DNA from: Haliotis asinina | Lineage: Eukaryota; Mollusca; Gastropoda; Lepetellida; Haliotidae | DNA: 64,000 bases | Assembly: GCF_037392515.1 (NCBI RefSeq) | Contig: NC_090281.1 | Span: 49,390,645-49,454,644 of the forward strand | Direction: 5' to 3' | Shown: one piece after another, positions 7,301 to 36,300 of the stretch | How positions within the stretch are numbered: position 1 is the stretch's first letter | Layout: every line of letters begins with the position of its first letter | Position numbers and translations under genes: made by a program | The notes under the pieces: model-generated | Told to the model about the DNA's origin: nothing | The model's input: the letters and a program-made list of their open reading frames with translations, nothing else | The model's database searches: none

Positions 7301-10300
7301 CAGGGTGCAAATCCCCGGACAACAACCATCAAGATTCAAGGTGAGTTCACAGCTTAGCCAAGTCCTGCCTGGTTTTGGATTGGAATTGAATACACAACAA
7401 TGACCACTATCACTGGCCATAGGAGACATGCCAAGTTACACGTCTGAGGGATACACAAAGTATGTGATCTGGGCTACCAGTTACACATTTCTCTGATGTC
7501 AAAGAGGCTGATTGGGTTAGATGGCTGAGTGCTGGCAATTGTATGCCTGACTCTTGAGAGTATGGGTTTGAATCCAGGATGGTATCCAAGAAAAGTACTA
7601 GTATCAGTACTACTTATCAATTCATTTTCATGAGAGATCTTCCTTAGGGTACTTATGAGCGTTAAAATGTCCATTTATAATTCCTACTACAGTTGTAACT
7701 ATGCTTTGAATAAAATATCAAAACAGAAAACTGTGATATACCATGTAATGTGGAGATACGACTTGATTGTTCCAGGAAGCAGCATAGTGCCTCCTGTTGG
7801 AGGCAAGCCCATCCAGATCAGCGGGAAGCCCCTCACTCACTCTAAGAGTCTGATGCAGCTTGGAGGGAAAAACCAGCAATCCTTAGGGATGATCCACACA
7901 CAACAGTTGTCAGCCATCAGTATCATACCACAGACAATCACAACCTGCATTGCCACCCTCTCACAGCCACGCAGTGTCGTATCTTCAGGTAGCCATGTTA
8001 ACACAAAACTGGAGTTGTTGAATTGTTAAAGTGTTTGCTTGACAAGTCAAGTATCTAGCTCCTCATGTCCTGATAAAAATGTCCCCTCTGTTGGATATTT
8101 AAATATATTATTACGTTCAGTTTCCAAATTTTGAATTCATAAGTAAAAATAATTTTCAAGTCATAATCAGTTGTGAAAGTTGTCATTTTGATTCGAGAAC
8201 CATGAACCTTGAGAAAGCTAGTGTCAGTTTTATGCATTGGTCAGAGTTAGTGAAAAAGGTAGTTCTGACCTGACTTTTTATGGGATGTCAGTTGTTTGAT
8301 GTAATGGGCACTAGCATCTGTTTTTTTTCTTGAAAAGTGAATCAAACTTCATAGTGAAGATAATGTAATATAGCATTGAGCTTAATTAAAAGTTTGATAT
8401 AAATGCACAGATGGTATTGTTATGTGGTTTGCAAAATATACAGATTTAAAGATCGTTGAGAAACATTCATGATATGTATATAGAATAGCCTCCCTTAGGT
8501 GTGTCAGGTTCTGCTTTTTGTTTAGTTCCAAGATACTTGATGTCTCCATTTCTTGGTTTCACCAATGTGGTCTTTTACCAGCGTGGCTTTGAACTTTGTT
8601 CCCATATTACGTTGACAAAGGATACTGACAAGTATTTGGAGGAAAGTTAAAGCATACTCATTCTTGTTTTTAGCGACGTCCAACACAGGTGTGACGGAGG
8701 TGTCAACAAGTGGACAGCAGCACATGACGGTCGGGCAACCAAAGATGACCATAGTGGGTCAGGTAGGGCCCATCACATCCACGCAGGCCCAGACAGTGAA
8801 CATGGGAGGTCAGCCCAGGGTCGTGAACACCTCACCTGGAGGGATCTTTGTCACACATCTTGCACCAGGAATCTCACTCAGACCAGGTCAGTTTGGGGAG
8901 GATAACATCTAAAACTCAGTTTGTTCCAAAATAAGTTTTTTGTTTGTTTAATTTCATTTGCTTGACAATGATATTAGAATCTATGTAGAAATGTCGCCTG
9001 TCACAAAATAGTAGAAGAAAAAACTTGTCATCATTTTTCATGTTTGTTTAATGTCGCACTCAGCTAAATACCATCTATATGGCAGTGATCTGTAAGTCAT
9101 AAAGACAATCCTGTGATCAACAGCATGAGCATTGATCTATGCAGTTGGGATACAATTACATCGGTCAACGAATTCAGTGAGTCTGACCACTCGATCATGT
9201 TAGTAACCTCTTGCAACAAGCATGGGTTAGTCCAATTCTAATCCGGATCTTCACAGTTTGAGTCTCATTTGGATGGAATGGCTGATTGTAGGCCATCATA
9301 ATTTGTAGAATGTATCTCATGCATACAACCACTGGTTTTGCTGGCCCAAACTTGAGTAGACTGGCTGTGGTAATATAGGCAAATGGTACTGTGGTGTTAG
9401 ACTCTCAACGCCCTGTTCCTTCCAGGTTTACCAGGGGTGGGCCAGGCCAAGATGGTGTCTGCCAGTCAGGCTGGTCTAGCCCAGCTCATCATGCAGCAGA
9501 CACCGCAGGGACTGAAGACTGCCGGAGGTGAAACTGTCGGGGTCGTGCCCAACGTCTCACAGGGTAAACATGCTTCCACTATTCATGTTATGGCGTTTTT
9601 CTTAGGGAGTTGGATGTTGTTGTATATCACACGGTGTGTCCCTACCTGTGCCTTGATCACTGCCAGATTACCAGTTTCTGTTATGATGCACAGAAACATC
9701 ATGTAGTTGGAATTATGTAATAATTCTCTGTTAATATTACTTTGTTTGTGTGTGAGTGAGTGAGTGAGTGAGTGAGAGAAGATAATGCTGTTTTCTACAT
9801 TTTTAACCTATCTGTGTTAAATTGACTACATTAACCACACCTATACCCTTACTCTGCTTCATGTAACAGGATCATCTGTCCTTACTCTCCTTCATGTAAC
9901 AGGATCATCTATGTCCTTACTCTCCTTCATGTAACAGGATCATCTATGTCCTTACTTTCATTCATGTAACAGGATCATCTATGTCCTTACTCTCCTTCAT
10001 GTAACAGGATCATCTATGTCCTTACTCTCCTTCATGTAACAGGATCATCTATGTCCTTACTCTCCTTCATGTAACAGGATCATCTATGTCCTTACTTTCA
10101 TTCATGTAACAGGATCATCTATGTCCTTACTTTCATTCATGTAACAGGATCATCTATGTCCTTACTTTCATTCATGTAACAGGATCATCTATGTCCTTAC
10201 TTTCCTTCATGTAACAGGAACACCTATGTCCTTACTCTCCTTCATGTAACAGGATCATCTATGTCCTTACTCTCCTTCATGTAACAGGAACACCTATGTC

Positions 10301-10939
10301 CTTACTTTCCTTTATGTAACAGGAACACCTATGTCCTTACTCTTTCCTCCACTGTAGCAGAAACACTTGTTCTTGCTCTTTCCTCCACTGTAACAGGAAC
10401 ACCTATGTCCTTCTCTCCTTCACTGTGACAGAAATACCTATGTCCTTACTCTCTCCTTCATTGTAACAGGAACACCTCTCATCGTCAGCAATGCAGGGAA
10501 GGGTGGTCAGAACATCCAGGTGGTTCGGACTGTGTTGTCCCAGCAGGCTGGACTGAAGCCAGGGCAAGCCACCATTCTCATCTCGCAACCCACCCTCCAG
10601 CAGAACCCAGCCACCATGATGTCCACATCCCAGGTCATCCACACCACCAAGTCCGTCCGCGGCTCACCCAAAGGCAAACCACAGCCAGTGTATGCGCGTA
10701 TCATTACACCACCACCAGGGATGAAGCTGACAAACGTGCCTCAAGGCACATCTGTCGGTGCCTCTGGTGTTAGTGTTATACAGACTGTAGGGAAACTTGT
10801 GAACAGTGTGACAACAGCTACTGCACATCATCCTACGGTGACTACAGTGACAGTGGCCACCCCTCCATCAACACCATTAGCATCTGTGGACATCGGAGAC
10901 GGAACAGGAAAGACAGATTCAGGAGAAAGTAAACCGTAG
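1252..10939 (+). CDS. NFRKB: NFRKB (INO80 complex subunit), 3' half of gene, 13 coding exons
   Basis: Nuclear factor related to kappa-B-binding protein is a metazoan subunit of the INO80 chromatin-remodelling complex, where it binds the deubiquitinase UCH37; it acts in the nucleus. Thirteen exons join with consistent phases: 1252-1339, 2511-2637, 3205-3394, 3619-3679, 4143-4317, 4525-4631, 5231-5354, 5749-5822, 6506-7340, 7776-7988, 8674-8886, 9426-9563 and 10470-10939. They give 937 residues and a TAG stop. Hallmarks recalled from vertebrate NFRKB are SSLNSWF, FVVRPTSQEEK, MHGYESVVGPVKGVY, RDAAARLPNGEGTR, KDSQFLAPGVTDTQ and DPCVKYDVNRKLWIYLHR. The middle of the product is the winged-helix domain. 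From 6506 onward it is low-complexity Ser/Thr/Gln/Val-rich, as in the family tail. The first exon begins at codon position 3, so the N-terminal half lies upstream of the window. The intron before the last exon is filled by a minisatellite built from that exon's own acceptor. Confidence 0.95.
1560..1985 (+). repeat. Degenerate ~30-bp tandem array in NFRKB intron
   Basis: About a dozen diverged copies of a unit containing TTTTAGCTCACCTGAACTTG. Read on the minus strand each unit contains TTCAGGTGAGCT, a near-perfect splice-donor consensus. No antisense gene was seen. Confidence 0.85.
2511..2637 (+). CDS. NFRKB: NFRKB exon b (LEERIREWQ)
   Basis: The acceptor is TCTGTTCTAG and the donor is CTGG|GTGAGA. 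The reading frame gives LEERIREWQESPSSSLNSWF, close to the vertebrate segment, then a tryptophan-containing helix ending GDVLG. Phase 0 in and phase 1 out. Confidence 0.9.
2780..2893 (+). repeat. SINE family A, 5'-truncated
   Basis: Only the core from CCCCACATGGGCACAATG onward remains, ending in CTCACTCAATTACTC. Confidence 0.7.
3205..3394 (+). CDS. NFRKB: NFRKB exon c
   Basis: It follows TTGTATTAG. It encodes VDNFIPYLDYKERAQQWKW and then an acidic stretch ending in GSPPPPRA. The donor GC|GTCAGT leaves two bases that the next exon's first G completes to Ala. Confidence 0.85.
3619..3679 (+). CDS. NFRKB: NFRKB exon d
   Basis: A small exon after GTTTCCAG encoding KTAFVVRPTSQEEKATFQEQ, a well-conserved NFRKB segment. 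The donor is CAG|GTCAGT, phase 0. Confidence 0.9.
3720..4060 (+). repeat. GT-rich minisatellite in NFRKB intron
   Basis: Several 50-60 bp copies built around GGGGTATGGATGGAGTG and TTTTGTGAGGAGGGTGTGG, between exons d and e. It is not clearly derived from the neighbouring splice junction. Confidence 0.85.
4143..4317 (+). CDS. NFRKB: NFRKB exon e, winged-helix start
   Basis: It follows TTGTTTCAG. It encodes NPHKAFIYHMHGYESVVGPV and ends in DRPAFVTILTL. This is the conserved entry into the NFRKB winged-helix domain. Phase 1 out. Confidence 0.95.
4525..4631 (+). CDS. NFRKB: NFRKB exon f, winged helix
   Basis: It encodes VRDAAARLPNGEGTRGDICE and then LLKDSQFLAPGVTDTQ, nearly the same as vertebrate NFRKB. 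Acceptor TGCTTTCAG, donor CAG|GTGGGT. Confidence 0.95.
5231..5354 (+). CDS. NFRKB: NFRKB exon g, winged helix
   Basis: It encodes INTVVSGALDRLHSEKDPCV and then KYDVNRKLWIYLHRNRTEEEF, the end of the winged helix. Acceptor TTGTGGACAG, donor TTTG|GTAAAC. Confidence 0.95.
5749..5822 (+). CDS. NFRKB: NFRKB exon h
   Basis: It encodes ERIHQAQGAAVKAKKSLQ followed by KPKTAKT, the basic linker after the winged helix. Acceptor GTCTTCCAG, donor ACA|GTAAGT. Confidence 0.92.
6105..6215 (-). repeat. SINE family B fragment
   Basis: The plus strand shows GATCCCGTTAGTCACCTC and TGCATGGGTTGCTGAAGAT, the reverse of the family B head. The rest is decayed. Confidence 0.55.
6506..7340 (+). CDS. NFRKB: NFRKB exon i, large low-complexity exon
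   Basis: An 835-base exon opening with IKDAISAQSAPRQTVSTN after TTTTTCTTCAG. It is rich in Ser, Thr, Gln, Val and Ala and has no recognisable fold. It ends at CAAG|GTGAGT, phase 1. All remaining tail exons enter and leave in phase 1, except that the last one ends at the stop. Confidence 0.9.
7776..7988 (+). CDS. NFRKB: NFRKB exon j
   Basis: A 213-base symmetrical phase 1-1 exon encoding a GSSIVPPVGGKPIQISGKPL-type tail sequence. Acceptor TTGTTCCAG, donor TCAG|GTAGCC. Confidence 0.85.
8674..8886 (+). CDS. NFRKB: NFRKB exon k
   Basis: Also 213 bases and phase 1-1, encoding ATSNTGVTEVSTSGQQHMTV and ending in HLAPGISLRP. Acceptor TTGTTTTTAG, donor CCAG|GTCAGT. Confidence 0.85.
9043..9258 (-). 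repeat. SINE family B copy
   Basis: The plus strand carries CGCACTCAGC, GTGATCAACAGCATGAGCAT and CAAGCATGGGTTAG in the order expected for a reversed copy. Confidence 0.7.
9426..9563 (+). CDS. NFRKB: NFRKB exon l
   Basis: A 138-base phase 1-1 exon encoding GLPGVGQAKMVSASQAGLAQ and ending in GVVPNVSQ. Acceptor CTTCCAG, donor CAGG|GTAAAC. The following intron holds the acceptor-derived minisatellite. Confidence 0.85.
9838..10469 (+). repeat. 35-bp minisatellite of the NFRKB last-exon splice acceptor
   Basis: About 17 tandem units, 35 bp each where intact (for example acceptors at 9934, 9969, 10004, 10039 and 10074). Each contains CTCCTTCATGTAACAGGA. The unit equals the polypyrimidine tract, AG and first exonic bases of the real exon at 10470. 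Distal units read CAGGATCATCT; proximal units read CAGGAACACCT, which is the exon start itself. Confidence 0.93.
10470..10939 (+). CDS. NFRKB: NFRKB last coding exon
   Basis: It opens with GTPLIVSNAGKGGQNIQVVR after CATTGTAACAG and ends in DSGESKP and TAG at 10937-10939. Its acceptor and first codons are the template of the 35-bp array directly upstream. Confidence 0.88.
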
Positions 10940-12295
10940 GGTATGTTTAGGATCGACTATTCAGGCATTGTAGTCTTCATCATCTACACAGACTACTGTT
11001 GTTTAACAACTCTCGGAACATCAATGATATTGTGTGTGTCTGGTGTGCTTGTTCAGCAGAACATCTCCAGATTTGGAACAACTGGAGAGAATGTCTGAAA
11101 GAACACTGAAATTGTTAATTTTGTTGGGAATTTCAATATTCAGTATCACTGTGTTAAAGAGAACAGAAAGTGTAATACATATTATCTAGCTGTTAGTTCA
11201 AGGAGATGCTGGTTCAATGCATGTACAGTCGTATCGGACATCGGGACAATTCCATATCTGCATTGTTAACAGGAAGAAATCATGAAAATCTAGGAGTGAT
11301 CTGCATTGAAAACTAGGAATGATCTTCATACAGTTGAATGAGATGAAGCAGTGTGAGCCCGGCTTGTCCGAGGTGTGTCATAATTGTGTTCAAGATGACA
11401 CTGTCTCATGCCATTTGACTCAACTAGAATCACCCCTCTAAGTAATCACAGCTACCACACGTAGACTTGTGGCTGTCATAACACTACAATTGCTTGTAGA
11501 ATGGAACCAAGGGCTGCCTTCCTCTACATTTTCACATCTGCCAAACATAGACTTATGACTTTTGTAACAATATGACTGCTTTGTGGAATGGAACCCAGGG
11601 CAGCATTCCTATGTTTTCACAGCTACCATACATAGATTTACGACTGTCGTAACTCTATGATTGCGTTTTGGAACCAGGCTGAGGGTTGCATTCCACTAAG
11701 TAATAACATTACATAGACTTCTGAACAGTGCTGTCTTAATTGTTTGAACAAACAGGGTGAACAGGGTGGTTCTAGACTTGCCCAACCCATATCTGTTGTT
11801 GTTGTGAATTGTACACATTATAAGCATTATTCACTGTTAAATTTCCTTTTTACTTTAAATTAATATCTTGTTGTGGATTTTGTTGAGTGTTTTTGTTCAG
11901 TGAATGCATCCTATTACGTAGGCTTCCTAACTTGTTGGTTGTTCTTGCTTCAGTTCATTGTATGTTCAGTATCCAGATTCTCAAAATTGGTGTGCCAAGT
12001 TAAGGGCTCCAGGCAGCTTACATACAAATACAAATGAAGATTGTGAAAACCACCAACACTCTGCCAAACTTACAAGTCCTATTTCACATGAATTTTGAAA
12101 GGTTTCTTTTAGTACTCAGTATAATATGACTGGCTGACAAGGCGGTTGGGTGTCTCTGTATAAAGGGGTTAATATTTTTGTAACAAAATATTTTTTGTGA
12201 AATGCAGTTGTGTCCCGTTGATGTGTTTTCTCATACTGCATCGAGTATATCATGTTGCTTCATGTTATGTCAACTTACCACAGTGACAAACTGTG
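10940..12295 (+). other. NFRKB 3' UTR and downstream
   Basis: No second gene is seen. The stretch most likely holds the 3' untranslated region. No clear AATAAA was recognised, so the transcript end is unknown. It includes the 85-bp repeats listed separately. Confidence 0.5.
11440..11735 (+). repeat. ~85-bp tandem repeat (about 3.3 copies)
   Basis: TAGACTT-type starts occur at 11462, 11548, 11633 and 11714. Units share CTGTCGTAAC, ATGATTGC and GGAACCCAGGG motifs. They resemble the palindromic elements near 13.4 and 43.7 kb. Confidence 0.7.
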
Positions 12296-12525
12296 AAGGT
12301 CTAGGTTAGAACTGATCTTCAGTAACCCATGCTTGTCGCAAGAGGCGACCAATGGGATCGGGTAGTCAGGTTCGCTAACTTTGTTAATGCATGTCATGTT
12401 ATCCCAGATGTGTGGAACAATGATGTTGATCACTGTATTGTCTGGTCTAGACTCAATTATTTACAGACCGCCACCATTTAGCTGGTACACTGCTGAGTGC
12501 GGCATTAAACAACTACCATAACAGT
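12296..12525 (+). repeat. SINE family B copy
   Basis: Reads GATCTTCAGTAACCCATGC, then AAGAGGCGACCAATGGGATC, then ACAGACCGCCACCATTTAGC, and ends near GAGTGCGGCATTAAACAAC. This is the family B order on the plus strand. Confidence 0.75.
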
Positions 12526-13354: not shown

Positions 13355-13357
13355 ATC

Positions 13358-18668: not shown

Positions 18669-19590
18669 GATATAACATTACATGAAGCTACTTACTACCT
18701 GTCACCTGACGAGCAATATTTCTTCCATTGCTTTGTGACAGCTAGTTTCACACCTGCCCGGTAGGTGTCGCTCGCATCACTTCCGCCCTCGTTTATATGG
18801 TCTCTACGGCAAGACTATGCTATAACGATGCTATCAACATTCATGATGTTCAAAATCGCGGGATACAGCAATAATGCCCAGATACAATTTCGATATGCAG
18901 GGTCGAACATGTCAGTCAGGCTGGAATATTGGTAATTCTTTTGTACAAAGATATAGTTTTGGTCATTTTGGTTCATACATAATTTTACACATGATAGCTA
19001 TAGAAGGCATGGATGTTTTATGGGTACCAGTTTTAATCGAATTAAAATCAAATGAACGTTTCAGAAGTAAATTATTTTTTTCCATTGAACTCTATCCTTA
19101 GGACAGATTTAATACAAACTGACTCTAGGAGCAGAAGTAACAACAGCTGCGTGTTTTGTTGTAACGCAGAACTTAAAGTCTTCCATGCGTTTCACTGTTT
19201 AATAAATCTGCTATTCCATCGTTTCCTAAGTAAAACGCTTGAAAATTCTAAATAACGCGCAATACATCAGAGCATCAAAATATGTTGACTTTGAATTTTA
19301 TATCAACGATTAAAATCACGCACGCACACACCATCAACATACACATATACAATGTATATGTATGTATGGCGTGATGAATTTTTGAAACAATTATTTATTT
19401 ATGTTTCAGTGGATACATTCTACATAATTTTAATTGGTTTTAACTAACATGACGCTTGAAGATTCCCGCAAACAAAGAACCAGACCCTCGAATTCCGTAG
19501 GTAGGTGTGTGGAACAATTTGGCACATCCAAATCGGACTTAAATCAGTTACCATGAGTTAACATTATCCAGCAAAGGTTAACTTGTTTTA
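18669..19590. promoter_or_regulatory. Intergenic region between divergent genes
   Basis: 0.92 kb separates the Ly6 start codon (minus) from the lysine-rich gene's start codon (plus). It should contain both promoters, possibly shared. No TATA box or defined site can be asserted. It includes a 150-bp direct repeat at 18847. Confidence 0.4.
18847..18998 (+). repeat. 150-bp dispersed repeat, copy 1
   Basis: Starts ATGTTCAAAATCGCGGGATA and runs to near ACACATGATAG. Diverged copies recur in intron 1 of both duplicated blocks, near 20059 and 23865. Confidence 0.85.
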
Positions 19591-19773
19591 ATGTTAGTCA
19601 ACATTGGTGCGCCCGGGACAATCGGGCCTGTGAAAGGGGAATATTATTTTGTGTATGACGTCATAATGCATCATAGCGACGTCGTCATTATTGAGACAAG
19701 GCAAGTCAGAGCGGCGCGTATTTTGAAGAAGTTCTCATCGTTTAAAACTGCCACGTACACCGTTGCAGTAAAG
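19591..19773 (+). CDS. Lysine-rich gene exon 1, copy A
   Basis: 61 codons from ATG (MLVNIGAPGTIGPVKGEYYF) to VAVK at donor AAG|GTAAGT. Confidence 0.65.
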
Positions 19774-22700
19774 GTAAGTTGTAATGCTCGTACATAGACA
19801 ATGTATCTATAATTATAAACACAAATGTTTTGAACCGTGTTTTATACATTATACGTGAAACGCCTGCTGTGACCCAGCTCATGGAAAACGTGGAGATAGT
19901 TGAAATGTTCCCGGAGAGCACGAGCCACATGTAACCACGTTAGAGCCAAACTCTCACCAGAGAGCAGAAAATCGCTTTCTTAGACTATATCATTAGACTT
20001 TAAATTGACTCAACACCGAACTATTCAGTGACCATTACGTTGTCTGCTGTGATACTGATGTTCAAAATCGCGGGATACAGCAATAATGCCTAGATACAAT
20101 TTCGTTAAGCTGGGTCGATCCTGTCAGTCATGCTGGAATATTGGTAATTCTTTTGTATAAAGATATAGTTTTTGTCATTGTGGGTCATACGTAATGTTAT
20201 ACATGATAGATACGCAGTTTTAAATACGCACAAAGCCATCATAAACTGGTGTTCGCAATCACGAAAATATATAACCAGGCGACACAGAAATACAATTTTA
20301 ATTCTTTTCTTTACTTTTTTTTGTTTGTTATATATAATGTCTTGTGTCGTAGTCCTGAATTTTTATCAATAGAATTAGAAATAAAACCATTGGAAAATAT
20401 TTTGCCGTTTATCGCAGTCATTGTAATAGCTGAATGCGACTTTGGACAACTCTTTCTAGGTGAATATGTCTCTGGCATTAATAGACCTTGAGATGGAGAG
20501 CCACGTGAGCGATACTGAAAGCACCAGAAAGAAACCTAAAGTGTCACCTTTAGGGTTCAAAACCACAACTGATATCATTGAACACGTCAGCCTCAGGGGT
20601 CATTGCCACATGGATCTCAAAACAGTCAAGGCTGAGAATAAGGATCAAAACAAGGACCAAGTAAATGGTAAGTGGCATCAGCTATTTCCAGAGTATCCCA
20701 GATGAAGCCTTTGTAATCTCAAGAATTATAGGAAACAGCCACAATCAGCCACAATCAGCCTGAACTTAGTTTTACGCCACACTCAGCAATTTTTCATCTA
20801 TATGGCGGCGGTCTGTAAATAATCGACCAGACAATCTAGTGATCAACAGCATGAGCATTGAGAACCGATGATGTGTCAATCAAGTCAGCGAGCCTGACCA
20901 CCCGATCCCGTTAGTCGCCTCTTATGACAAGCATAGTCGCCTTTTGTGGCATGCATGGGTTGCTGAAGATCTATTCTACCCCGGATCTTCACGGGTCACG
21001 GATGCAAGTCATCGTACCCCAAGCGACGGTGCTCATGGTATCAATGGCTATGGTGCCAAGTCCAAACTTGTCTGTTTACTGACAGCCGTCACTGAGTTGG
21101 ATTATTGCTAAATGGCGTTATACAACAAGCCATGAAACAGACAGTAATATCAGATCTAGTTCAAAGAAAATATTTTTCATTGTTTTGTGTCATAAAAGCA
21201 CACGAACAATATTAATAAAACCTTATCTCCTAATAGGGATTAACAACGCCAAAGAGAAGAGAAAATGCAAGAAGGTAAAAGATGCACAGAAGACAAAGAA
21301 TGCAAAATATGCAAAGAAGGCGAAAGATGCCCAGAAGGAAAAGGATGCAAAGAAGGCAAACGATGCACAGAAGGAAAAGGATGCAAAGAAGGGGAAAAAG
21401 CGAGACACGGAAAAGGTGGTGAAGGACGCCAAGTGGGGAACCCTCTGCCGTGTCCTACAAGTAAGGCCACGTCAAACTAGGCTTCTGTTTGTGGCAATCA
21501 CCGCTTCCCTTTTGAGTACACACAATTTAGTCGGATGATGATTGTACGAAGAGACGTTAATGCTCTACAAACCGTTCCCTGTTAAATCAACAAACTCTCA
21601 CCGACTCCATATGTCGGTATGTAGATAACACATAGCTAAACAATACGCATATAAGATGAATGCCACAATCAGTTCCATTAGGCTATATCGCCGTTCCAAA
21701 GGCACGGAATGTCAAGTCACAAGAATAAAAATTCTAAATTTCTCAGTTCAGTATTATGTATGGCCGCCCCGTGCACTCACCACTGCCAAATTCCGTCTCC
21801 TCATCGACTGCCTGATGCTTGTGAACACTTGGTTGGGGATTCTGCGTCATTGCTCTTGCAAGGCAACGCCAAGTTCCTGCAAATTCTGAGGTTGGTTCCC
21901 AAGACCACGAAGCAGTGAATCCCACATGTGCTCTATTGGATTAAGGTCAGGGGACCTCAATGGCCAGTCCATCACGTTGATTTCAGCGTTTTGAAGGAAA
22001 TTTCGTGTCAACATCGCGGTATGCGGCCGAGCATTATCATGCTGGAACTGTAGACCTGGGCCATGAGCCGCCATGAAAGGAACGAGTTCAGGGGTGAGCA
22101 GTTGGTCGCGGTAAGCAGCAGGTGCGAGGTTTCCACGGATGACCTGAAGTCGGGAACGGTTGTTCCCACAGAAAGCACCCCACACCATGCAACTTACACC
22201 CCCGAACCTGTCGACTTCCTATACACAACATTTTGCATACCGTTCACGACGTCGTCCGCGATTCCTGTCTCTCTGGGTCCATCGGAGGTGACGTTGGGCC
22301 CACAGCAGACGTTGACGTTGATGAAACGGCGTCAATATTGGCCCACAATATAGACGTCGAGAATGGAGATTGGCAACCTACAACCGATTTCGAATGGTCT
22401 GTGAGGACAGTCGACCTCTAAACATCTCGACCCTGGTTCGTGTAGCCAGCAGAAATCTGTCACGTAGGTGACGTAGCACGATTTGACGGTCGCCTGCACG
22501 TGACGTCACACGTGGACGACCCGACCTTGGGCGATCAGAGGTGGAGTCAGTTTGTTGTAGACGACCTCGCAAGTCATACACAGTACGACGGCTGCATCCC
22601 ATTGTTCTTGCGACGTCAATAACTGATTTCCCGCTTGCAACATGCCAACGGCACGTTCACGTTGTACATTTGACAATCGTGGCATTTAAAGTACCGTTAG

Positions 22701-24115
22701 AACTGTGGTTGAAAAAAATTGGCACAATTCTTGAGGCCAATGCAAACACGTACACATGAAGAAAACTTCGATGCAAAGATCACATGATCGATTGCACGTG
22801 CAAACCCTGATTTGGCACTAACGTCATTTGCACGACGAATGGATGGGTTTGAGTGGGTTTTGCTAACGTTTTTCTAGAGTCGGAAGATAGGGATCCCATT
22901 TCGGATACACAGATGTCTAGATAATAGAGAAAAATTATTCATTATTTTTTAAAATTACATTTTGTGAAGTTTCTATTTTGACTCAGTATATTACCTATGA
23001 AGTGTAATATACATCACAAATATTTTCACTTTCACAAACCCGTCGAACTTTTAAGCTCTGATGACATTGGCGTCACCTTCCGCAGGCAGTTAGCAAGCCA
23101 TTTTTTTTTTGTGTAAGCGCGATTTTATTCAGATAGTATTGAGGGCTTTTCCAACCCTTTTAGCAGCAATCATGTGAAACCTGGGCTTTTTTCATATTGT
23201 TAGCAGATCCGGAAGCTAGAGGCTCAGGTGATTGCTGGAATACACCGTATTCCATTGCACGAGATGCTTTTTCGCAAACAAAGAACCAGACCCTCGAATT
23301 CCGTAGGTAGGTGTGTGGAACAATTTGGCACATCCAAATCGGACTTAAATCAGTTACCATGAGTTAACATTATCCAGCAAAGGTTAACTTGTTTTAATGT
23401 TAGTCAACATTGGTGCGCCCGGGACAATCGGGCCTGTGAAAGGGGAATATTATTTTGTGTATGACGTCATAATGCATCATAGCGACGTCGTCATTATTGA
23501 GACAAGGCAAGTCAGAGCGGCGCGTATTTTGAAGAAGTTCTCATCGTTTAAAACTGCCACGTACACCGTTGCAGTAAAGGTAAGTTGTAATGCTCGTACA
23601 TAGACAATGTATCTATAATTATAAACACAAATGTTTTGAACCGTGTTTTATACATTATACTTGAAACGAATGCTGTGACCCAGCTCATCAAAAACGTGGA
23701 GATAGTTGAAATGTTCCCGGAGAGCACGAGCCACATGGAACCATGTTAGAGCCAAACTCTCACCAGAGAGCAGAAAATCGCTTTCTTAGACTATATCATT
23801 AGACTTTAAATTGACTCAACACCGAACTATTCAGTGACCATTACGTTGTCTGCTGTGATACTGATGTTCAAAATCGCGGGATACAGCAATATTGCCCAGA
23901 TACAATTTCGTTAAGCTGGGTCGATCCTGTCAGTCATGCTGGAATATTGGTAATTCTTTTGTATAAAAATATAGTTTTTGTCATTGTGGGTCATACGTAA
24001 TGTTATACATGATAGATACGCAGTTTTAAATACGCACAAAGTCATCATAAACTGGTGTTCGCAATCACGAAAATATATAACCAGGCGACACAGAAATACA
24101 ATTTTAATTCTTTTC

Positions 24116-24151
<36 letters not shown>

Positions 24152-27100
24152 TTATATATAATGTCTTGTGTCGTAGTCCTGAATTTTTATCAATAGAATT
24201 AGAAATAAAACCATTGGAAAATATTTTGCCGTTTATCGCAGTCATTGTAATAGCTGAATGCGACTTTGGACAACTCTTTCTAGGTGAATATGTCTCTGGC
24301 ATTAATAGACCTTGAGATGGAGAGCCACGTGAGCGATACTGAAAGCACCAGAAAGAAACCTAAAGTGTCACCTTTAGGGTTCAAAACCACAACTGATATC
24401 ATTGAACACGTCAGCCTCGGGGGTCATTGCCACATGGATCTCAAAACAGTCAAGGCTGAGAATAAGGATCAAAACAAGGACCAAGTAAATGGTAAGTGGC
24501 ATCAGCTATTTCCAAACAGAGTATCCCAGATGAAGCCTTTGTCATCTCAAGAATTATAGGAAACAGCCACAATCACATGGAACGGACTAAAATCGTCCTC
24601 CAGCGAACCATATCAGCCATAAGAGACAAATGAAGGTAACGGGTTGTGAAACTATCGTGCTTGATTGATGCAGTGAGTGAACTTAGTTTTACGCTACACT
24701 CAGCAATTTTTCATCTATATGGCGGCGGTCTGTAAATAATCGACCACACAATCTAGTGATCAACAGCATGAGCATTGAGAACCGATGATGTGTCAATCAA
24801 GTCAGCGAGCCTGACCACCCGATCCCGTTAGTCGCCTCTTATGACAAGCATAGTCGCCTTTTGTGGCATGCATGGGTTGCTGAAGATCTATTCTACCCCG
24901 GATCTTCACGGGTCACGGATGCAAGTCATCGTACCCCAAGCGACGGTGCTCATGGTATCAATGGCTATGGTGCCAAGTCCAAACTTGTCTGTTTACTGAC
25001 AGCCGTCACTGAGTTGGATTATTGCTAAATGGCGTTATACAACAAGCCATGAAACAGACAGTAATATCAGATCTAGTTCAAAGAAAATATTTTTCATTGT
25101 TTTGTGTCATAAAAGCACACGAACAATATTAATAAAACCTTATCTCCTAATAGGGATTAACAACGCCAAAGAGAAGAGAAAATGCAAGAAGGTAAAAGAT
25201 GCACAGAAGACAAAGAATGCAAAATATGCAAAGAAGGCGAAAGATGCCCAGAAGGAAAAGGATGCAAAGAAGGCAAACGATGCACAGAAGGAAAAGGATG
25301 CAAAGAAGGGGAAAAAGCGAGACACGGAAAAGGTGGTGAAGGACGCCAAGTGGGGAACCCTCTGCCGTGTCCTACAAGTAAGGCCACGTCAAACTAGGCT
25401 TCTGTTTGTGGCAATCACCGCTTCCCTTTTGAGTACACACAATTTAGTCGGATGATGATTGTACGAAGAGACGTTAATGCTCTACAAACCGTTCCCTGTT
25501 AAATCAACAAACTCTCACCGACTCCATATGTCGGTATGTAGATAACACATAGCTAAACAATACGCATATAAGATGAATGCCACAATCAGTTCCATTAGGC
25601 TATATCGCCGTTCCAAAGGCACGGAATGTCAAGTCACAAGAATAAAAATTCTAAATTTCTCAGTTCAGTATTATGTATGGCCGCCCCGTGCACTCACCAC
25701 TGCCAAATTCCGTCTCCTCATCGACTGCCTGATGCTTGTGAACACTTGGTTGGGGATTCTGCGTCATTGCTCTTGCAAGGCAACGCCAAGTTCCTGCAAA
25801 TTCTGAGGTTGGTTCCCAAGACCACGAAGCAGTGAATCCCACATGTGCTCTATTGGATTAAGGTCAGGGGACCTCAATGGCCAGTCCATCACGTTGATTT
25901 CAGCGTTTTGAAGGAAATTTCGTGTCAACATCGCGGTATGCGGCCGAGCATTATCATGCTGGAACTGTAGACCTGGGCCATGAGCCGCCATGAAAGGAAC
26001 GAGTTCAGGGGTGAGCAGTTGGTCGCGGTAAGCAGCAGGTGCGAGGTTTCCACGGATGACCTGAAGTCGGGAACGGTTGTTCCCACAGAAAGCACCCCAC
26101 ACCATGCAACTTACACCCCCGAACCTGTCGACTTCCTATACACAACATTTTGCATACCGTTCACGACGTCGTCCGCGATTCCTGTCTCTCTGGGTCCATC
26201 GGAGGTGACGTTGGGCCCACAGCAGACGTTGACGTTGATGAAACGGCGTCAATATTGGCCCACAATATAGACGTCGAGAATGGAGATTGGCAACCTACAA
26301 CCGATTTCGAATGGTCTGTGAGGACAGTCGACCTCTAAACATCTCGACCCTGGTTCGTGTAGCCAGCAGAAATCTGTCACGTAGGTGACGTAGCACGATT
26401 TGACGGTCGCCTGCACGTGACGTCACACGTGGACGACCCGACCTTGGGCGATCAGAGGTGGAGTCAGTTTGTTGTAGACGACCTCGCAAGTCATACACAG
26501 TACGACGGCTGCATCCCATTGTTCTTGCGACGTCAATAACTGATTTCCCGCTTGCAACATGCCAACGGCACGTTCACGTTGTACATTTGACAATCGTGGC
26601 ATTTAAAGTACCGTTAGAACTGTGGTTGAAAAAAATTGGCACAATTCTTGAGGCCAATGCAAACACGTACACATGAAGAAAACTTCGATGCAAAGATCAC
26701 ATGATCGATTGCACGTGCAAACCCTGATTTGGCACTAACGTCATTTGCACGACGAATGGATGGGTTTGAGTGGGTTTTGCTAACGTTTTTCTAGAGTCGG
26801 AAGATAGGGATCCCATTTCGGATACACAGATGTCTAGATAATAGAGAAAAATTATTCATTATTTTTTAAAATTACATTTTGTGAAGTTTCTATTTTGACT
26901 CAGTATATTACCTATGAAGTGTAATATACATCACAAATATTTTCACTTTCACAAACCCGTCGAACTTTTAAGCTCTGATGACATTGGCGTCACCTTCCGC
27001 AGGCAGTTAGCAAGCCATTTTTTTTTTGTGTAAGCGCGATTTTATTCAGATAGTATTGAGGGCTTTTCCAACCCTTTTAGCAGCAATCATGTGAAACCTG

Positions 27101-27874
27101 GGCTTTTTTCATATTGTTAGCAGATCCGGAAGCTAGAGGCTCAGGTGATTGCTGGAATACACCGTATTCCATTGCACGAGATGCTTTTCGTCATTTGCCA
27201 TTACTACATCCCTGTATCGGCAACTCCAAATTCTCACATAAGTGATAAACGTGTATGGTAGCCGTTGTATGTTTCCAGGAATCACCTCCTAACAGGTGTG
27301 ATTTTTGTGCAGGCGTTAACGCTATGGGGACCTGCCACGTTCACGTCTCCACTCAACTGTGATGACTTCGGGTGCGACGACATCAGTTTTGATGGTAAGC
27401 GTTCAGGATATCAGAGTATTAGCTCTGTAGAAGTATTCTAGAAATGTGTTCAGAAAACAATTTTTATGAGTAGTCTAACTGACAAACATACGAAGTCCCT
27501 ACGAGATACACCTTGAGTTTTGAGTGAATAGGAGTCAGGTTACAACGTAAATACAATTTCATGAACTGTTTTAGCTCTGTTCACTTACGCCCCTCGTTAT
27601 ACCACCTTGACGTGTTCATATCACACGTGAGTTTCTATCACCTCTTTAGTAAACTCTTCTGTTCAGGTCACCTGTTCCACTACTCTCCTTAATATACTGC
27701 ATCTTCTGTTTAGGTCACCTGTTTGAATACGCCTCTCGCCCCCCTGTCATCCCAAAGGTTGACGTTCCCCGTCTCCGCCTGCGGCCGACGCTCAAGAAGA
27801 GACTTTACAACATCGCCCACAACATTTTCCGATGTGGATCAATGAAACAAAACAACCAATATACATTGGATTAG
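19591..27874 (+). CDS. Unrecognised lysine-rich protein gene with duplicated exons 1-3
   Basis: I do not recognise this protein. Phase-compatible exons are exon 1 (19591-19773, copy 23397-23579), exon 2 (20460-20667, copy 24284-24491), exon 3 (21237-21460, copy 25154-25377), exon 4 (27313-27394) and exon 5 (27714-27874, TAG). One set of each gives 284 residues. Exon 2 carries a basic RKKPK motif, so a nuclear location is possible. Exon 3 encodes a highly charged repeat of the type KDAQKEKDAKK, likely helical. Exon 5 is basic (RLRLRPTLKKRLYNIAHNIF). The start at 19591 is the first ATG after an in-frame TAA. Exons 2 and 3 together are 432 bases and phase 0-0, so splicing exon 3A to exon 2B would stay in frame. 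No homologue is known to me; the gene may be lineage-specific. Confidence 0.65.
20059..20212 (+). repeat. 150-bp dispersed repeat, copy 2
   Basis: Diverged copy of the 18847 repeat, inside intron 1 of block A. Confidence 0.85.
20460..20667 (+). CDS. Lysine-rich gene exon 2, copy A
   Basis: Acceptor CTCTTTCTAG, donor AATG|GTAAGT. It encodes VNMSLALIDLEMESHVSDTE and the RKKPK motif. Phase 0 in, phase 1 out. Confidence 0.68.
20754..20998 (-). repeat. SINE family B in block A, truncated
   Basis: The plus strand reads CACTCAGCAATTTTTCATC, then GGCGGCGGTCTGTAAATAAT, then CCGGATCTTCACGGGTCACG. The end that starts GAGACAAATGAAGG in block B is missing here. Confidence 0.8.
21237..21460 (+). CDS. Lysine-rich gene exon 3, copy A
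   Basis: Acceptor TCTCCTAATAG, donor CAA|GTAAGG. It encodes repeated Lys/Ala/Asp/Gln units from NNAKEKRKCKKVKDAQK to WGTLCRVLQ. The reverse strand shows an open Phe/Ser/Ala frame that is only its shadow. Confidence 0.68.
21754..22685 (-). mobile_element. Dead Tc1-like transposon (transposase remnant), copy A
   Basis: Minus strand, ATG at 22683-22685 to TAA at 21754-21756. It has a helix-turn-helix (MGCSRRTVYDLRGRL), a GRPR-like link (RPRSGRPRV), then FQHDNARPHTA and SPDLNPIEHMWD, with 34 residues between Asp and Glu (DD34E, the Tc1 signature). Lesions: a frameshift near residue 20, TAG stops after QTIRNRL and after AKCCV, a TGA within the final region, and loss of the segment with the first catalytic Asp. 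It cannot be active. Terminal inverted repeats were not found. Confidence 0.9.
23397..23579 (+). CDS. Lysine-rich gene exon 1, copy B
   Basis: Encodes the same 61 residues as copy A with the same donor. Confidence 0.62.
23865..24020 (+). repeat. 150-bp dispersed repeat, copy 3
   Basis: Block B counterpart of the 20059 copy. Confidence 0.85.
24284..24491 (+). CDS. Lysine-rich gene exon 2, copy B
   Basis: Differs from copy A by one residue seen (HVSLGGHC instead of HVSLRGHC). Same splice sites. Confidence 0.65.
24612..24915 (-). repeat. SINE family B in block B, long copy
   Basis: It carries the extra GAGACAAATGAAGG and TTGATTGATGCAGTGAGTG block, also seen at 15.86 kb, that block A lacks. 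Confidence 0.8.
25154..25377 (+). CDS. Lysine-rich gene exon 3, copy B
   Basis: Translation identical to copy A. It is the nearest copy to the single downstream exon 4. Confidence 0.65.
25671..26602 (-). mobile_element. Dead Tc1-like transposon, copy B
   Basis: Same sequence as the 21754-22685 remnant with every lesion shared. The transposon was already broken before the block was duplicated. Confidence 0.9.
27313..27394 (+). CDS. Lysine-rich gene exon 4
   Basis: It follows GATTTTTGTGCAG. It encodes ALTLWGPATFTSPLNCDDFG and CDDISFD. Donor GATG|GTAAGC. Phase 0 in matches exon 3. Confidence 0.65.
27714..27874 (+). CDS. Lysine-rich gene exon 5 (last)
   Basis: It follows CTTCTGTTTAG. It encodes GHLFEYASRPPVIPKVDVPR, a basic stretch and NNQYTLD, with TAG at 27872-27874. 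Confidence 0.65.
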
Positions 27875-28692: not shown

Positions 28693-28693
<1 letters not shown>

Positions 28694-30167: not shown

Positions 30168-30357
30168 ATGGCACTGTGTAAGACAGCTGGCATGCATGTC
30201 CTAAGATGTATGAGATGTCGGCTGCCATTGTTGACGTCAGTCAGGCGAGGAGTTACTAGTCTGGAATATGAGAAGGATCAACACAATGGTGTGACTGTCA
30301 ACCTTGCCCAGCTTCCATCCAACACAACAGAGAAACAATTCCACACACAACTAAAAG
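30168..30357 (+). CDS. NUDT6: NUDT6 exon 1
   Basis: ATG at 30168-30170. It encodes a leader-like N-terminus and then NGVTVNLAQLPSNTTEKQFH. Donor AAAG|GTACTG, phase 1. Confidence 0.8.
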
Positions 30358-33300
30358 GTACTGAACAGTTCCCCATACAAACTTGAAAGTACCATAGGAC
30401 TTAAAGATACACCACGGTTGGGTGGTTGTTTGTTTGTTTAACACCATGCCAAGTAGTATCACTGCTATATGGTGACTGTCTGTTAATAATCTAGTCTTGG
30501 CCAGACAATCCAGTGATCAACATCATTAGCATCAATTTATACAACTGGGATATGATGACAAGTGTCAACCATATCCGCAAGCCTGAAGGGCACAAAATGT
30601 TGTTAGTTTCATATGCATAAATTTTGCTGTCAGGAAAATTCCATGTTATATTAAAGTGGCCACAAAATATAGCTGTTGATGACATGGGCAAGGATGACAC
30701 GATGCCAAGGCATCAGTTTGTGCATTGTAACATGGACACAGTTGCTTGCCTGTAGTATTGTCAAAATTAAAATCATATTCTTGTTAAAGCGCCTGCTGTC
30801 CTGTAACATTACCAACATATTGTTGGAGCATCTTTAGTCCTGGGGTGTTATTGCTATATTATTACATGAAGTGCCTACATACCTGGGTTGTTACTGCTAT
30901 GTTATTACACAGAGTGCCTACAGACATGGGGTGTTATTGCTATGTTATTACACACAGTGCCTACGGACAGGATGTTGCTGCTGTATTATTTCAAACAGTG
31001 GCCTACAGAGCTGGGATGCTCCTGCTATATTATTACACAGAGAACGAATTGTATTTTTTTTCTAAGATGATGTATTTAATAATTTCTAAGCCTAATTTCT
31101 ATTAATCTATGGCAGAAAACAAACGACGGTGTCTGTGACCTGAATTAAGAATCCTCGCACAGGGCTAACTGATGCGCTGTTCTTTTGACGTGTCAGCCCC
31201 CTACATTAAGACAAACGTTACTAGAAAAACAAATGATGAACAGTTTGGTGAAAGTTTATGTTCAGGTTAAATATCTTCTCTAGATCATTTTAATTTCATC
31301 TGTGATTCTCTTAAACCATACAAGGCAAAATGACCGTCTCATTTCTGCTACCAACGAAAGTTTAGATCAGTACATTTAGCTGAAGCTGACTAGTCATGCA
31401 ACATTCCACGATTGCATTGTGGGAATGTAAACATTGCAAACATGAACGTGTCTCTGTAAAGTTTTGAGTTGAACTATGAGGCATTTTATCCTTCTGAAAA
31501 CATAAACATAATGTTTCCACCGGTGATGTTAGCTGTGTGATGCAGCTGCAAACCGAAAAACGGGAATCAGTTTACTGTGGGAGTCTGTACGAGGGGATGG
31601 CAACTGACATCCATTGTGACGTTGGTTACATTGTGACGTAATGCAAAAAAGTTCGATTACGAGGGGGCAGACTGGAATGGCGCAGCGACGTCAACACATT
31701 GTGATGTAATGCAAAAAGTGTACATTATGGTGCGATAAAGTATTGTCGGTGCCTTTGATCTTTCACCGAAGCATCTTAGAAATTACTACAGAGTGCCTAC
31801 AGACTTGGGGTGTTATTGCTATATTATTACACAGAGTGCCTGCAAATCTGGGATGCTCCTGCTATATTATTAGACAGCGTGCCTACAGACCTGGGATGTT
31901 ACTGCTGTATTACTACACAGAGTGCCTACAGAGCTGGTATGTTACTGCTATGTGACTACACAGAGCGCCTACACAGAGTGCCGTGGGGTGTTATTGCTAT
32001 ATTGTTACACAGAGTGCCTACAGACATGAGGTGTTACTGCTATATTATTACACAGAGTGCCTACAGAGATAGGATGCTCCTGCTGCATCATTACACAGAG
32101 TGCCTACAGACTTGGGATGTTACTGCTATGTTACTACACAGAGTGCCCACAGACGTGGGGTGTTACTGCTATATTATTACACAGAGTGCCTGCAGACCTG
32201 GGGTGTTATTGCTATATTGTTACACAGAGTGCCTACAGACATGAGGTGTTACTGCTAAATTATTTCACACAGTGCCTACAGAGCTGGGATGCTCCTGCTA
32301 CATAATTACACAGAGTGCCTACAGACATGAGGTGTTGGTGCTATATTATTACACAGAGTGCCTACAGAGTTGGAATGCTCCTGCTACATTATTACTCAGT
32401 GCGCCTGCAGGCCTGTGGTGCTATTGCTATATTATTACACACAGTGTCTACAGACTTTGGGTGCTACTGCTATGTTATTACACGGAAGGGCCTACAGAGC
32501 TGGGATGCTCCTGCTGTATTATTACACAAAGAGCCTGCGGACCTTGCTTGTTACTGCTATATTATTACTCACAGTGCCTACAGACCTGGCGTGCTACTGC
32601 TGTATTATTACACAGAGTGCCTGCAGGCCTGAGGTGTTATTGCTATATTATTACACACTGTGCCTGCAAATCTGGGATGCTCCTGCTATATTATTAGACA
32701 GAGTGCCTACAAACTTGGGGTGTTAATGCTATATTACTACACAGAGTACCTACAGACTTTGGGTGTTGCTGCTATATTATTACACAGAGTGCCTACAGAG
32801 CTGGGATGTTACTGCCATATTACTACACAGAGTGCCTACAGAGCTGGGATGTTGTTGCTATGTTACTACACTGAGTGCCTACAGATATGGGATGTTACTG
32901 AAATATTATTACACATTATTGCTCTATCATTACACAGAGTGCCTTTGCTATATCATTACACAGAGTGCCTGCAGTCCTGGCAAGCGGAAGATAGGTCAGC
33001 AGTATGGCTGCAGGTGCCTCTCACACACAGTCGACTGATTGCTGCTGCAGTAGAACACGGCTTCACATTTCACCATGCAGAGGGGGACAAGGCCATGCTG
33101 AAACTGTGGCTCCACCCATCCCAGTCTGACAGAACACCTCGGTTTGCTACCCACCAAATTGGAGCTTCAGGTATCTCCAATAGTACACAGGGATATTCCA
33201 AAGGTTGCAGTATTCCAGAAGACCTCATTTTCTCTGTGTGCGTGTGCGTGTGCGTGTGCGTGTGCGTGTGCGTGTGCGCGTGCGCGTGCGCGTGCGCGTG

Positions 33301-36300
33301 CGCACGCCTTTTAGGAATATTGCACCAATATCACTGCTGGGGACACCAGAAAAGGTTTTGTATAATTTTTCATAATTTCTGGTGACCAGAGTGAAAAAAG
33401 ACCATGCTTTTTCACTCCATAAGTAAGAATTGTTTTCACATAAAATGTTTTTTGAGTTAGTAGACTTGTAAAAGTTTCAAAAGAAGTACTGTTAAAAGTT
33501 TACTTGTTTTATCTATTTTAATCAGGTCTCAACCTCTTATGTAGATATGTGAGTAAAATGGAGAACTTTATATGTTTTTCAAATGGGTTTCTTAGAAATA
33601 TCATATATCATGTGTGTTAACTCTTTACTTCAGGGTTTGTTGTCAGAGAAGATCTTGAACAGGTGCTAGTCATAAAAGACAAAAACAGCAAAGTAAGTAA
33701 TAAAAGTTAATATATAAAGAAAAATATTGCACTGCTAGTGATATATTGTGCTCAAAGTATTGCACATGCTGAATCAGTGCTCATGAAATGACTTGAGCAA
33801 AGACTTTAACATCAAGGGGAGTCAAATCTTAGGACACTTATGTTCATGGTAATGCTAAAAGGGGCTTGAGTCATTGTCAGTTTTTGTTGCTGCCAATTAT
33901 TGTTTAATAACAATTAATTAAGAGTATAATTTTCCTTTTCTGAATGATTAATGCAAAAGTAGTTTGATTTGATGTATTAAGTAGACTAATTGATAAATCA
34001 AAAATCAGTATATTACTATTTCTTGTTTGGTGCAAGATGTTTAGGCAATAACAGTTCTGTTACACCATTTACTGATATTTGTCAAACAAACAGTTTATGT
34101 GGAGCTCGGTAGGTGATAACTCTAATGGGAAAATAGTTCTTTAGGCTGGTTGCCTTTGTTTGACTTCTTGCTACTGTTGAATGTGGACTGGTGTCAAACT
34201 TTTACAGTAACATGTTCTCAGAAAGCTTGTAGTAGCCAGCGCAACTACTACTTACATGTTGGTTTTATCCATTTAATTTAATCAATCATAGATGAAGTGT
34301 TCAGGCAATCAAAGCAAGTTTTCTTTGTCATTGTGGCTTGTTGTCTAAAACCTAAAACTGAAAAATAAACATGCTGAAATGTGTCATCATAGTTTTTTTT
34401 TTCCATTTTGAAACTTTTATGTTAAATTGTACTTAGTTCAAGTGAAGTGGTAAGTCAAGTTAATTTTATTTGAGACAGGAAGAACAGTCTTTAACTGTTA
34501 ACTCAAATCTTATGTGTTTGAAAGTGGCATTCAGAAGTTATACATCTAATACAGAGACAGTGGGAATGTTCACACAGGTAATACCAGTAGTTAATAAATC
34601 TTGACTAAGACGGGCACTAGATTATATATAGATTATGGTTTGTTGTGCAAGGTGATGACTAGGATTGATTGGTTAGACGGCGTGACTGATACTTTTTGAT
34701 GCATTGTATTCCAATCATATGCATTGATGCTCATTGCATCTATCACTGGATTGTCAGGCCTTGACATGGTAAGTGTGACCACAATATACAGACTGCCACC
34801 ACATAGCTGGAAATATATAAACAACATTCAAAGTCCTACTGAAAACGTTGATTTGCTGGTTTGCGGTCTATGGTTGCACTCAGCAATATTCCAGTTATAC
34901 AGTGGTGGTCTGTAATTAACCAAATGTGGACCAGACATTCCAGTGAGTAACATCATGAGCACTGATCTATGTCATTAGGACACAAAGACATGTGCAACCA
35001 TGTCAGCAAGCCTGGCCACCCAATCCCATTTGTTGCCTCTTACAACAAGCATTGGTGACTAAAGACCTGTTCTAACTAAGATCTTTGTGTGGAAAACAGC
35101 AAGGATCTAGGATAAGGTCAAAATGAGTGAAGCTCCAGTAAAATAAGTCTAATGCCTGTTTTTCCTTGTGATTTTCTGACCCTGTTGCTCTTTTCAGTTC
35201 AATTTGTGGAAATTCCCTGGCGGGTTGTCAGATCTAGGAGAGGATATAGGTAGGTACATTATTCACTCTAGGGTGAGGTTATAGGGAGGTACATATTCAC
35301 TCTACTGTGAGGATATAGGTAGGTACATATTCACTCTAGGGTGAGGATATAGGTGGGTACATTATTCGCTCTAGGGTGAGGATATAGGTGGGTACATTAT
35401 TGACTTGAGGGGGAGGATATCAGTAAGTACATTATTCACTCTAGGATGAGGATATAGGTAGGTACATTATTCACTCTAGGGTGAGGTTATAGGGAGGTAC
35501 ATATTCACTCTACTGTGAGGATATAGGTAGGTACATATTCACTCTAGGGTGAGGATATAGGTGGGTACATTATTTGCTCTAGGGTGAGGATATAGGTGGG
35601 GAGGATATCAGTAAGTACATTATTCACTCTAGGATGAGGATATAGGTAGGTACATTATTCACTCTAGGGTGAGGTTATAGGGAGGTACATATTCACTCTA
35701 CTGTGAGGATATAGGTAGGTACATATTCACTCTAGGGTGAGGATATAGGTGGGTACATTATTTGCTCTAGGGTGAGGATATAGGTGGGGAGGATATCAGT
35801 AAGTACATTATTCACTCTAGGATGAGGATATAGGTAGGTACATTATTCACTCTAGGGTGAGGTTATAGGGAGGTACATATTCACTCTACTGTGAGGATAT
35901 AGGTAGGTACATATTCACTCTAGGGTGAGGATATAGGTGGGTACATTATTCACTCTAGTGGGGAAATTGGTAGGCACATTCTTGACTTGAGGGGGAGGAT
36001 ATCAGTAATTACATTATCCACTTTAGAGGAGGAAACAGATATGTACATCATTTACTCTAGGGGAGAATACATTCAGGTACAATATTCACCCTAGGGGAGG
36101 ATATAGGTACGTACAGCATTTAGTCTAGGGTGAGGATATAGGTAGGTACATTATTCACTCTAGGGAAGTATATAGGAAAGTACATTATTCACTCTAGGGG
36201 AGTATATAGGAAAGTACATTATTCACTCTAGGGGAGGAACTGTGTAGGAGAAACCACGACTACAAGGGTTTCCGACTCTCAGGGTTCACAATCTCTTGTA

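What the first reader, a model, noticed from the sequence alone, without database searches (positions are those of the whole stretch)
9838..36240. Three minisatellites in two neighbouring genes are each built from a genuine splice junction
Seen directly: the arrays before the NFRKB last exon, before NUDT6 exon 2 and after NUDT6 exon 4 have units that span the exon-intron boundary (exonic bases plus AG or GT). Two amplify acceptors and one amplifies a donor. Chance overlap in all three seems unlikely, since only about 20 introns lie in the window. Either junctions are preferred seeds for tandem amplification in this genome, or arrays that carry working splice signals are tolerated or selected. 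I recall minisatellites over intron junctions being reported in amphioxus, but a general mechanism is not something I know to be described.
Basis: partly seen in the sequence, partly recalled or inferred. Interest (0 to 1): 0.88.

Follow-up and report, generated by a model that had tools for sequence, protein, structure and literature searches.

The report
Minisatellites spanning splice junctions ("mirages")
Some short DNA repeats in this animal genome are tandem copies of the exact place where an exon meets an intron, leaving dozens of decoy splice sites; the same kind of repeat is known from amphioxus, and here it turns up in several unrelated genes of what is probably a mollusc.

Summary
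Arrays of 35, 43 and 35 bp units cover the acceptor of the last NFRKB exon, the acceptor of NUDT6 exon 2 and the donor of NUDT6 exon 4, reaching 8, 17 and 17 nt into the exons. A fourth covers an NFRKB donor (4296-4395). Myosin genes of the same genome, picked without regard to repeats, gave three more, one array stopping 1 bp short, and one predicted. This is the "mirage" minisatellite described from amphioxus, and related repeats are reported at human exon-intron boundaries, so the kind is known; the host is probably a gastropod (inferred).

Sliding arrays within their own introns predicts 1.7 of 19 junction-covering arrays; 7 were seen (P=0.0002). The independent myosin set alone is weaker (3 of 11, 0.79 expected, P=0.034; strict rule P=0.13). 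Decoys keep AG/GT in 90 of 110 copies, with no consistent sign of selection for or against. Best reading: ordinary minisatellite birth, tolerated at junctions because the exon-side copy stays intact, with a probable several-fold junction bias of unknown cause.

The parts
9847..10477 (+). Acceptor mirage: 35-bp minisatellite, unit ...CTCTCCTTCATGTAACAG|GATCATCTATGTCCTTA, ending over the acceptor of the last NFRKB exon
   Evidence: TRF, sequence, BLAST self-match to 10477; AG kept in 13 of 13 decoys aligned
10470..10939 (+). Last NFRKB exon, first 8 bases inside the array
   Evidence: open frame to stop, phase fits exon 12
31782..32980 (+). Acceptor mirage: 43-bp minisatellite, unit ...TATTATTACACAG|AGTGCCTACAGACCTGG..., over the acceptor of NUDT6 exon 2
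   Evidence: TRF rows 31782-32915 and 32919-32970, BLAST to 32980; AG kept in 22 of 32 decoys, both blocks counted
30839..31039 (+). Outlying block of the same 43-bp repeat, about 740 bp from the main array
   Evidence: same consensus unit
32964..33170 (+). NUDT6 exon 2, first 17 bases inside the array
   Evidence: gapless protein alignment to human NUDT6 across the exon 1/2 join
35198..35249 (+). NUDT6 exon 4, last 17 bases inside the array
   Evidence: gapless alignment to human NUDT6 over ...EDIG|DTAVREV
35233..36238 (+). Donor mirage: ~35-bp minisatellite, unit TCTAGGGTGAGGATATAG|GTAGGTACATTATTCAC, starting inside NUDT6 exon 4
   Evidence: TRF, sequence; GT kept in 21 of 29 decoys
4296..4395 (+). 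Short donor mirage: 35-bp unit x 2.9, TTTGTCACCATACTCACATTAG|GTACAG, over the donor of NFRKB exon 4143-4317
   Evidence: TRF, sequence, exon frame

Best explanation
These are mirage minisatellites. A stretch of about 24-43 bp that straddles a splice junction was duplicated in tandem and the extra copies were amplified into the intron by slippage or unequal exchange. The copy next to the coding sequence remains the real splice site (kept by purifying selection); the others are intronic decoys. Growth at a donor pushes copies downstream, at an acceptor upstream, so the reading frame survives as long as splicing keeps using the exon-proximal site, presumably by exon definition. Junctions appear to be hit several times more often than equal stretches of intron, which points to a mutational bias at exon edges or to better survival there. 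Shown: anatomy, exon-edge position, recurrence in other genes, many intact decoy dinucleotides. Inferred: order of events, choice of the exon-proximal site, reality and cause of the bias.
For: Array ends lie 8, 17, 17 and 22 nt inside exons at four of 34 mapped junctions in the window. Myosin-head exons from a family search, fetched without knowledge of repeats (68 of 125 matches): L035 donor CCAATCATGGAG|GTAAGT in a 33-bp x 15.5 array, L039 donor GATAAACCAG|GTACAC in a 41-bp x 12.3 array, and in the same L039 intron the acceptor TTGATACAG|GTGAACC in a 24-bp x 14.4 array. Among 20 arrays in mapped introns or flanks, 8 have an end between -23 and +1 bp of a junction and none has one between +2 and +51. 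Reshuffle: 7 of 19 cover a junction, 1.69 expected, P=0.0002. The exon-proximal copy differs from the array consensus by 0-2 bases on its exon side in the six arrays compared (for array 1 few decoys align there).
Against: The window was picked because it showed the effect; the independent set alone gives P=0.034, or 0.13 under a stricter rule, and two of its three cases sit in one intron. The 25 exons of the C5 muscle-myosin cluster (no array above threshold) and 9 kinesin exons (only 110 bp of flank) gave none. The array end for NUDT6 exon 2 was extended by hand from TRF's 32915 to 32980. Junctions in myosins were called by score, not verified one by one. No transcript data, so use of the exon-proximal site is not shown.
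Confidence: 0.6

Rival explanations
1. Pure tolerance: the genome is so full of minisatellites that some fall on junctions by chance, with no bias toward them.
For: Minisatellites cover 8.2% of 180 kb from 18 arbitrary stretches and 7.8% of the window. Random points in the same introns lie near a copy more often (19-21%) than junctions do (3 of 34). Reshuffling still expects 1.69 of 19. In the independent set the excess is modest (3 of 11 against 0.79).
Against: All-data reshuffle P=0.0002; array ends are concentrated at -23 to +1 with none at +2 to +51. The end-copy rate from TRF is 0.4-0.7% per point, against 4 of 34 window and 3 of 130 myosin junctions.
Confidence: 0.33
2. Arrays of splice sites are selected, for example to buffer or regulate splicing.
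For: Splice dinucleotides are present in 90 of 110 decoys, and in the NFRKB last-exon and L039 donor arrays in every decoy aligned (13 of 13, 11 of 11).
Against: In both NUDT6 arrays these columns are weaker than the mean. Five of eight units are not multiples of 3, and the nearest decoy acceptor of NUDT6 exon 2 shifts the frame and leads to stops.
Confidence: 0.05
3. The introns themselves arose by tandem duplication of an exonic AGGT segment, so the repeats are remnants of intron gain.
For: Proposed for amphioxus globins (PMC3087553, passages); novel introns from minisatellites at exon-intron boundaries are reported in human duplicated genes (PMC2812944, passages).
Against: The donors of NUDT6 intron 1 and of the last NFRKB intron have no copy within 1.5 kb although repeats of the array lie there; the array of NUDT6 intron 4 ends 7.3 kb before the acceptor (that acceptor was not compared with the array unit directly); the L039 intron has different units at its two ends.
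Confidence: 0.03
4. Assembly error or wrong gene models.
For: Single unnamed assembly; no reads seen.
Against: Copies differ from one another, covering arrays occur on three contigs (C2, C4, C13), and frames plus, for NUDT6, protein homology fix the junctions.
Confidence: 0.02

Closest known systems
Mirage minisatellites of amphioxus (Adh3, globins BflGb6 and BflGb9, TnC, PGBD5)
   Same: [quoted passage not shown] many but not all copies keep AG/GT; unit lengths overlap those of Adh3 (10-72 bp; here 24-43 bp) (PMC3087553 passages; PMC3902484 passage)
   Different: Another genome, with 16 contigs of 50-106 Mb, probably a gastropod; 12-28 copies by TRF (2.9 in the short one) against 3-6 units reported for BflGb6; two in one gene in NFRKB, NUDT6 and L039
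Internal tandem repeats at exon-intron boundaries of human genes in segmental duplications (PMC2812944, passages)
   Same: Minisatellites of about 30-bp units lying at exon-intron boundaries (27 intron modifications reported)
   Different: There repeats within exons may be spliced out as novel introns; whether units span an existing junction was not in the passages I saw
Intron gain by tandem genomic duplication (AGGT model)
   Same: Tandem duplication carrying splice signals next to exons
   Different: There the duplicate creates the intron, so both intron ends come from one unit; not seen in the introns tested here
Ordinary intronic minisatellites
   Same: Period and copy number
   Different: One end of the array lies inside an exon

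Membership tests
Mirage minisatellites | Tandem minisatellite-like repeat whose unit spans an exon-intron boundary | tested here: met
   Four in the window, three in myosin genes
Mirage minisatellites | Both 5' and 3' splice boundaries can be affected | tested here: met
   Window: two acceptors, two donors; myosins: two donors, one acceptor
Mirage minisatellites | Many but not all copies keep AG/GT | tested here: met
   90 of 110 decoys over six arrays (the short array 4296-4395 is not among the six)
Mirage minisatellites | Regular mRNA splicing not disturbed | not testable with these tools
   No transcripts
Mirage minisatellites | Length instability between haplotypes | not testable with these tools
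   One assembly
Mirage minisatellites | Boundary copy excluded from homogenisation | tested here: inconclusive
   Exon-side differences of the real copy from the consensus are only 0-2 bases
Intron gain by tandem duplication | Both ends of the intron lie in copies of one repeat | tested here: not met
   NUDT6 intron 1 and last NFRKB intron: donor has no copy although repeats of the array are within 1.5 kb; L039 intron: different units. NUDT6 intron 4 not compared directly
Intron gain by tandem duplication | Intron position is new in the lineage | not tested
   No orthologous genes of relatives at hand

The most novel reading that the evidence does not exclude
Splice junctions are preferred birth sites of minisatellites across animals with minisatellite-rich genomes, so that a few per cent of junctions in this genome carry arrays of decoy splice sites, and the spliceosome of such animals must routinely choose among a dozen or more near-identical sites.
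Probability: 0.35. Interest if true: 0.8.

Novelty: new member of a known kind. Interest (0 to 1): 0.45.

Why it matters
If the host is confirmed as a mollusc, mirages in the strict sense stop being an amphioxus oddity. They are natural tests of how splice sites are chosen: at the acceptors the sequence upstream of the real site is nearly the same as upstream of each of 13 or more decoys, so local signals can hardly decide and exon definition probably does. They also give intron-length change, and possibly cryptic exons, an unusual mutational source. If a junction bias is confirmed, it would demand a mutational mechanism acting at exon edges.

Tried and rejected
Point-coverage test: not used as the main test because any point in the middle of an array counts; reported because it goes against the claim. 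A copy-in-flank test at called junctions missed the L039 acceptor and the short 4296-4395 array, so counts use TRF ends. Splice-like motifs in array units: among 45 arrays not counted as junction arrays, 3 reach P<0.05 for donors and 3 for acceptors (one of the acceptors is the predicted L039 array), no excess; among the 9 counted ones 2 and 1. Flanks of arrays in the 18 arbitrary stretches and the window were translated and only looked over by eye; no library search was made with them. A Pfam scan of ten window ORFs gave nothing useful. Paper searches failed. Searches (phrase 'mirage minisatellites'; a repeat string) found nothing; one search did not name the species. PMC7931591 (gastropod hemocyanin introns, passages) holds no word beginning 'repeat' and does not bear on this. 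Paper look-up by a recalled DOI failed.

Rows dropped: the block 30839-31039 (same repeat and intron as array 2); five window arrays outside mapped introns (11446, 14425, 21294, 25211, 28739). L011 (a satellite) was left out of the arbitrary sample. The third L039 array was counted as not covering a junction. Of 18 kinesin exon edges two donors without a plausible site were set aside.
Full report
OBSERVATION. I built exon models: 13 NFRKB exons whose junctions read AG and GT and join to one open frame with a stop, and five NUDT6 exons (the NUDT6 exon 3 start was one base off and was corrected). The genes may have more exons outside what I mapped, and other genes of the window were not modelled. 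The NUDT6 protein aligns gaplessly with human NUDT6 over the two joins that matter (3fxt...FHTQLKECLQSWQAEDRSAVW; 3h95...EDIGDTAVREVFEETG; query side given). This places the acceptor of exon 2 at CACAG|AGTGCC, eleven bases upstream of another CAG one might first choose, and the donor of exon 4 at GATATAG|GTAGGT. The arrays reach 8 (NFRKB last exon), 17 (NUDT6 exon 2) and 17 (NUDT6 exon 4) bases into the exons. A fourth array, 4296-4395, covers an NFRKB donor by 22 bases with only 2.9 copies.

HOW SURPRISING IS IT? The genome is rich in minisatellites: 29 arrays in 180 kb from 18 stretches at fixed, arbitrary positions (a nineteenth, all satellite, left out), 8.2% coverage, and 7.8% in the window (period 15-120, score at least 80, at least 2.5 copies). 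A random point in the same introns has a nearby copy in 19-21% of cases, against 3 of 34 junctions by the same test. So lying in a repeat is not remarkable. But a junction can only lie in the end copy of an array, and end copies are rare: 0.4-0.7% of points by TRF, 1.5-2.5% by a looser copy test. The fair null is to slide each array within its own intron, allowing it to overhang exons by up to a unit less five bases. This gives 1.69 junction-covering arrays expected of 19, with 7 seen (P=0.0002). Window alone: 4 of 8, 0.89 expected, P=0.002. With at least five exon bases by TRF ends: 5 of 19, 1.44 expected, P=0.008. P values come from 20,000 slides; the window was the discovery set and must be discounted.

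INDEPENDENT GENES. I searched the window's own genome (1,143,192,487 bases; window at C2:49390645-49454644) with the myosin-head family (125 matches), fetched 20 stretches around exon matches and later four from the C5 muscle-myosin cluster: 68 of the 125 matches, 130 called junctions. Junction calls rest on splice-site scores near the match edges and were not each verified. Three arrays cover a junction: L035, a myosin exon ending ...VLASNPIME (read by eye) with CCAATCATGGAG|GTAAGT at the start of a 15.5-copy array; L039, donor AAGATAAACCAG|GTACACTTAG at the start of a 12.3-copy array; and in the same L039 intron the acceptor TTGATACAG|GTGAACCC at the end of a 14.4-copy array of a different unit, so this intron of 855 bp consists almost wholly of two mirages back to back. 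L032 has an array that ends at an acceptor without exon bases. As an independent test: 3 of 11 arrays, 0.79 expected, P=0.034; 4 of 11 if a one-base gap is allowed, P=0.006; 2 of 11, P=0.13, under the strict rule. The C5 cluster had no array above threshold. Nine kinesin exons out of 128 matches gave none at 16 usable junctions, though with only 110 bp of flank and the less sensitive test.

A PREDICTION. A third array in the L039 gene has units ...TCTTCTTTCTGTCACAG|CTAAGATGACCC. The preceding exon ends in phase 1 after ...GGIVG; G|CT AAG ATG ACC CA reads A-K-M-T-Q (both read by eye), as in the myosin motif VGAKI..YLLEKSRV (motif recalled).

WHAT THE COPIES SAY. Over six arrays the decoys keep the splice dinucleotide in 13/13, 22/32, 21/29, 10/11, 11/11 and 13/14 copies, 90 of 110. 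The picture against other columns is mixed: above the mean in the NFRKB last-exon array (1.00 against 0.89) and the L039 donor array (1.00 against 0.96), about level in L035 and the L039 acceptor array, and in both NUDT6 arrays the G of AG or T of GT is among the weaker columns (0.75-0.76 against means of 0.91-0.93). That fits neutral homogenisation, perhaps with some loss of decoys; it gives no consistent sign of selection to keep them. Use of the nearest decoy acceptor of NUDT6 exon 2 would shift the frame and meet stops.

MECHANISM. The simplest account is tandem duplication of a junction-straddling unit and expansion into the intron. The exon-proximal copy stays functional. For acceptors the upstream context of real and decoy sites is nearly identical, so choice by local sequence alone is unlikely; exon definition is the natural candidate (inference). 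Whether junctions are seeded more often, or junction arrays merely survive better, cannot be told from these data; chance is still possible at about one in three in my judgement.

WHAT IS KNOWN. The structure has a name: mirages, in amphioxus Adh3 and globin genes (PMC3087553, passages read), with TnC and PGBD5 added (PMC3902484, passage read). The globin paper says that the mechanism of their generation is unclear and that RT-PCR suggested no interference with splicing. Minisatellites at exon-intron boundaries are also reported in human genes of segmental duplications, where they can form novel introns (PMC2812944, passages read). Apart from PMC7931591 (passages), the other papers returned were seen as listings only, and four later searches failed, so I make no claim that junction-spanning arrays are unreported in molluscs.

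HOST. Sixteen contigs of 50-106 Mb, a window GC of 40.5% and repeats that I recall from abalone sequences suggest a vetigastropod; amphioxus chromosomes are much smaller (recalled). A search for the recalled repeat string in papers found nothing, and one for an abalone assembly with 16 chromosomes did not identify it. The host is therefore an inference.

Noticed in passing
window 19467-27188: Tandem duplication of about 3.9 kb: 20761-23271 matches 24678-27188 at 99.9% and 19467-20747 matches 23273-24575 at 97.2%.
   Followed up: partly
window 31040-31781: About 740 bp of other sequence separates two blocks of the same 43-bp repeat, as if something inserted into the array.
   Followed up: no
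window 1531-1987: A 29/87-bp array in an NFRKB intron whose reverse complement carries a strong donor-like CAG|GTGAGC in its unit (donor score 6.3, P=0.04 uncorrected); no antisense exon recognised.
   Followed up: partly
L039 2034-2301 and L053: Third array in the C4 myosin gene, unit carrying a strong acceptor in the phase that the preceding exon needs; predicted acceptor mirage of the next exon.
   Followed up: partly
L040-L043 (C5 muscle-myosin cluster): Twenty-one kb of tandem myosin paralogues without a minisatellite array above the thresholds used.
   Followed up: no
L011: The whole 10-kb stretch from C10 is one 172-bp satellite array.
   Followed up: no
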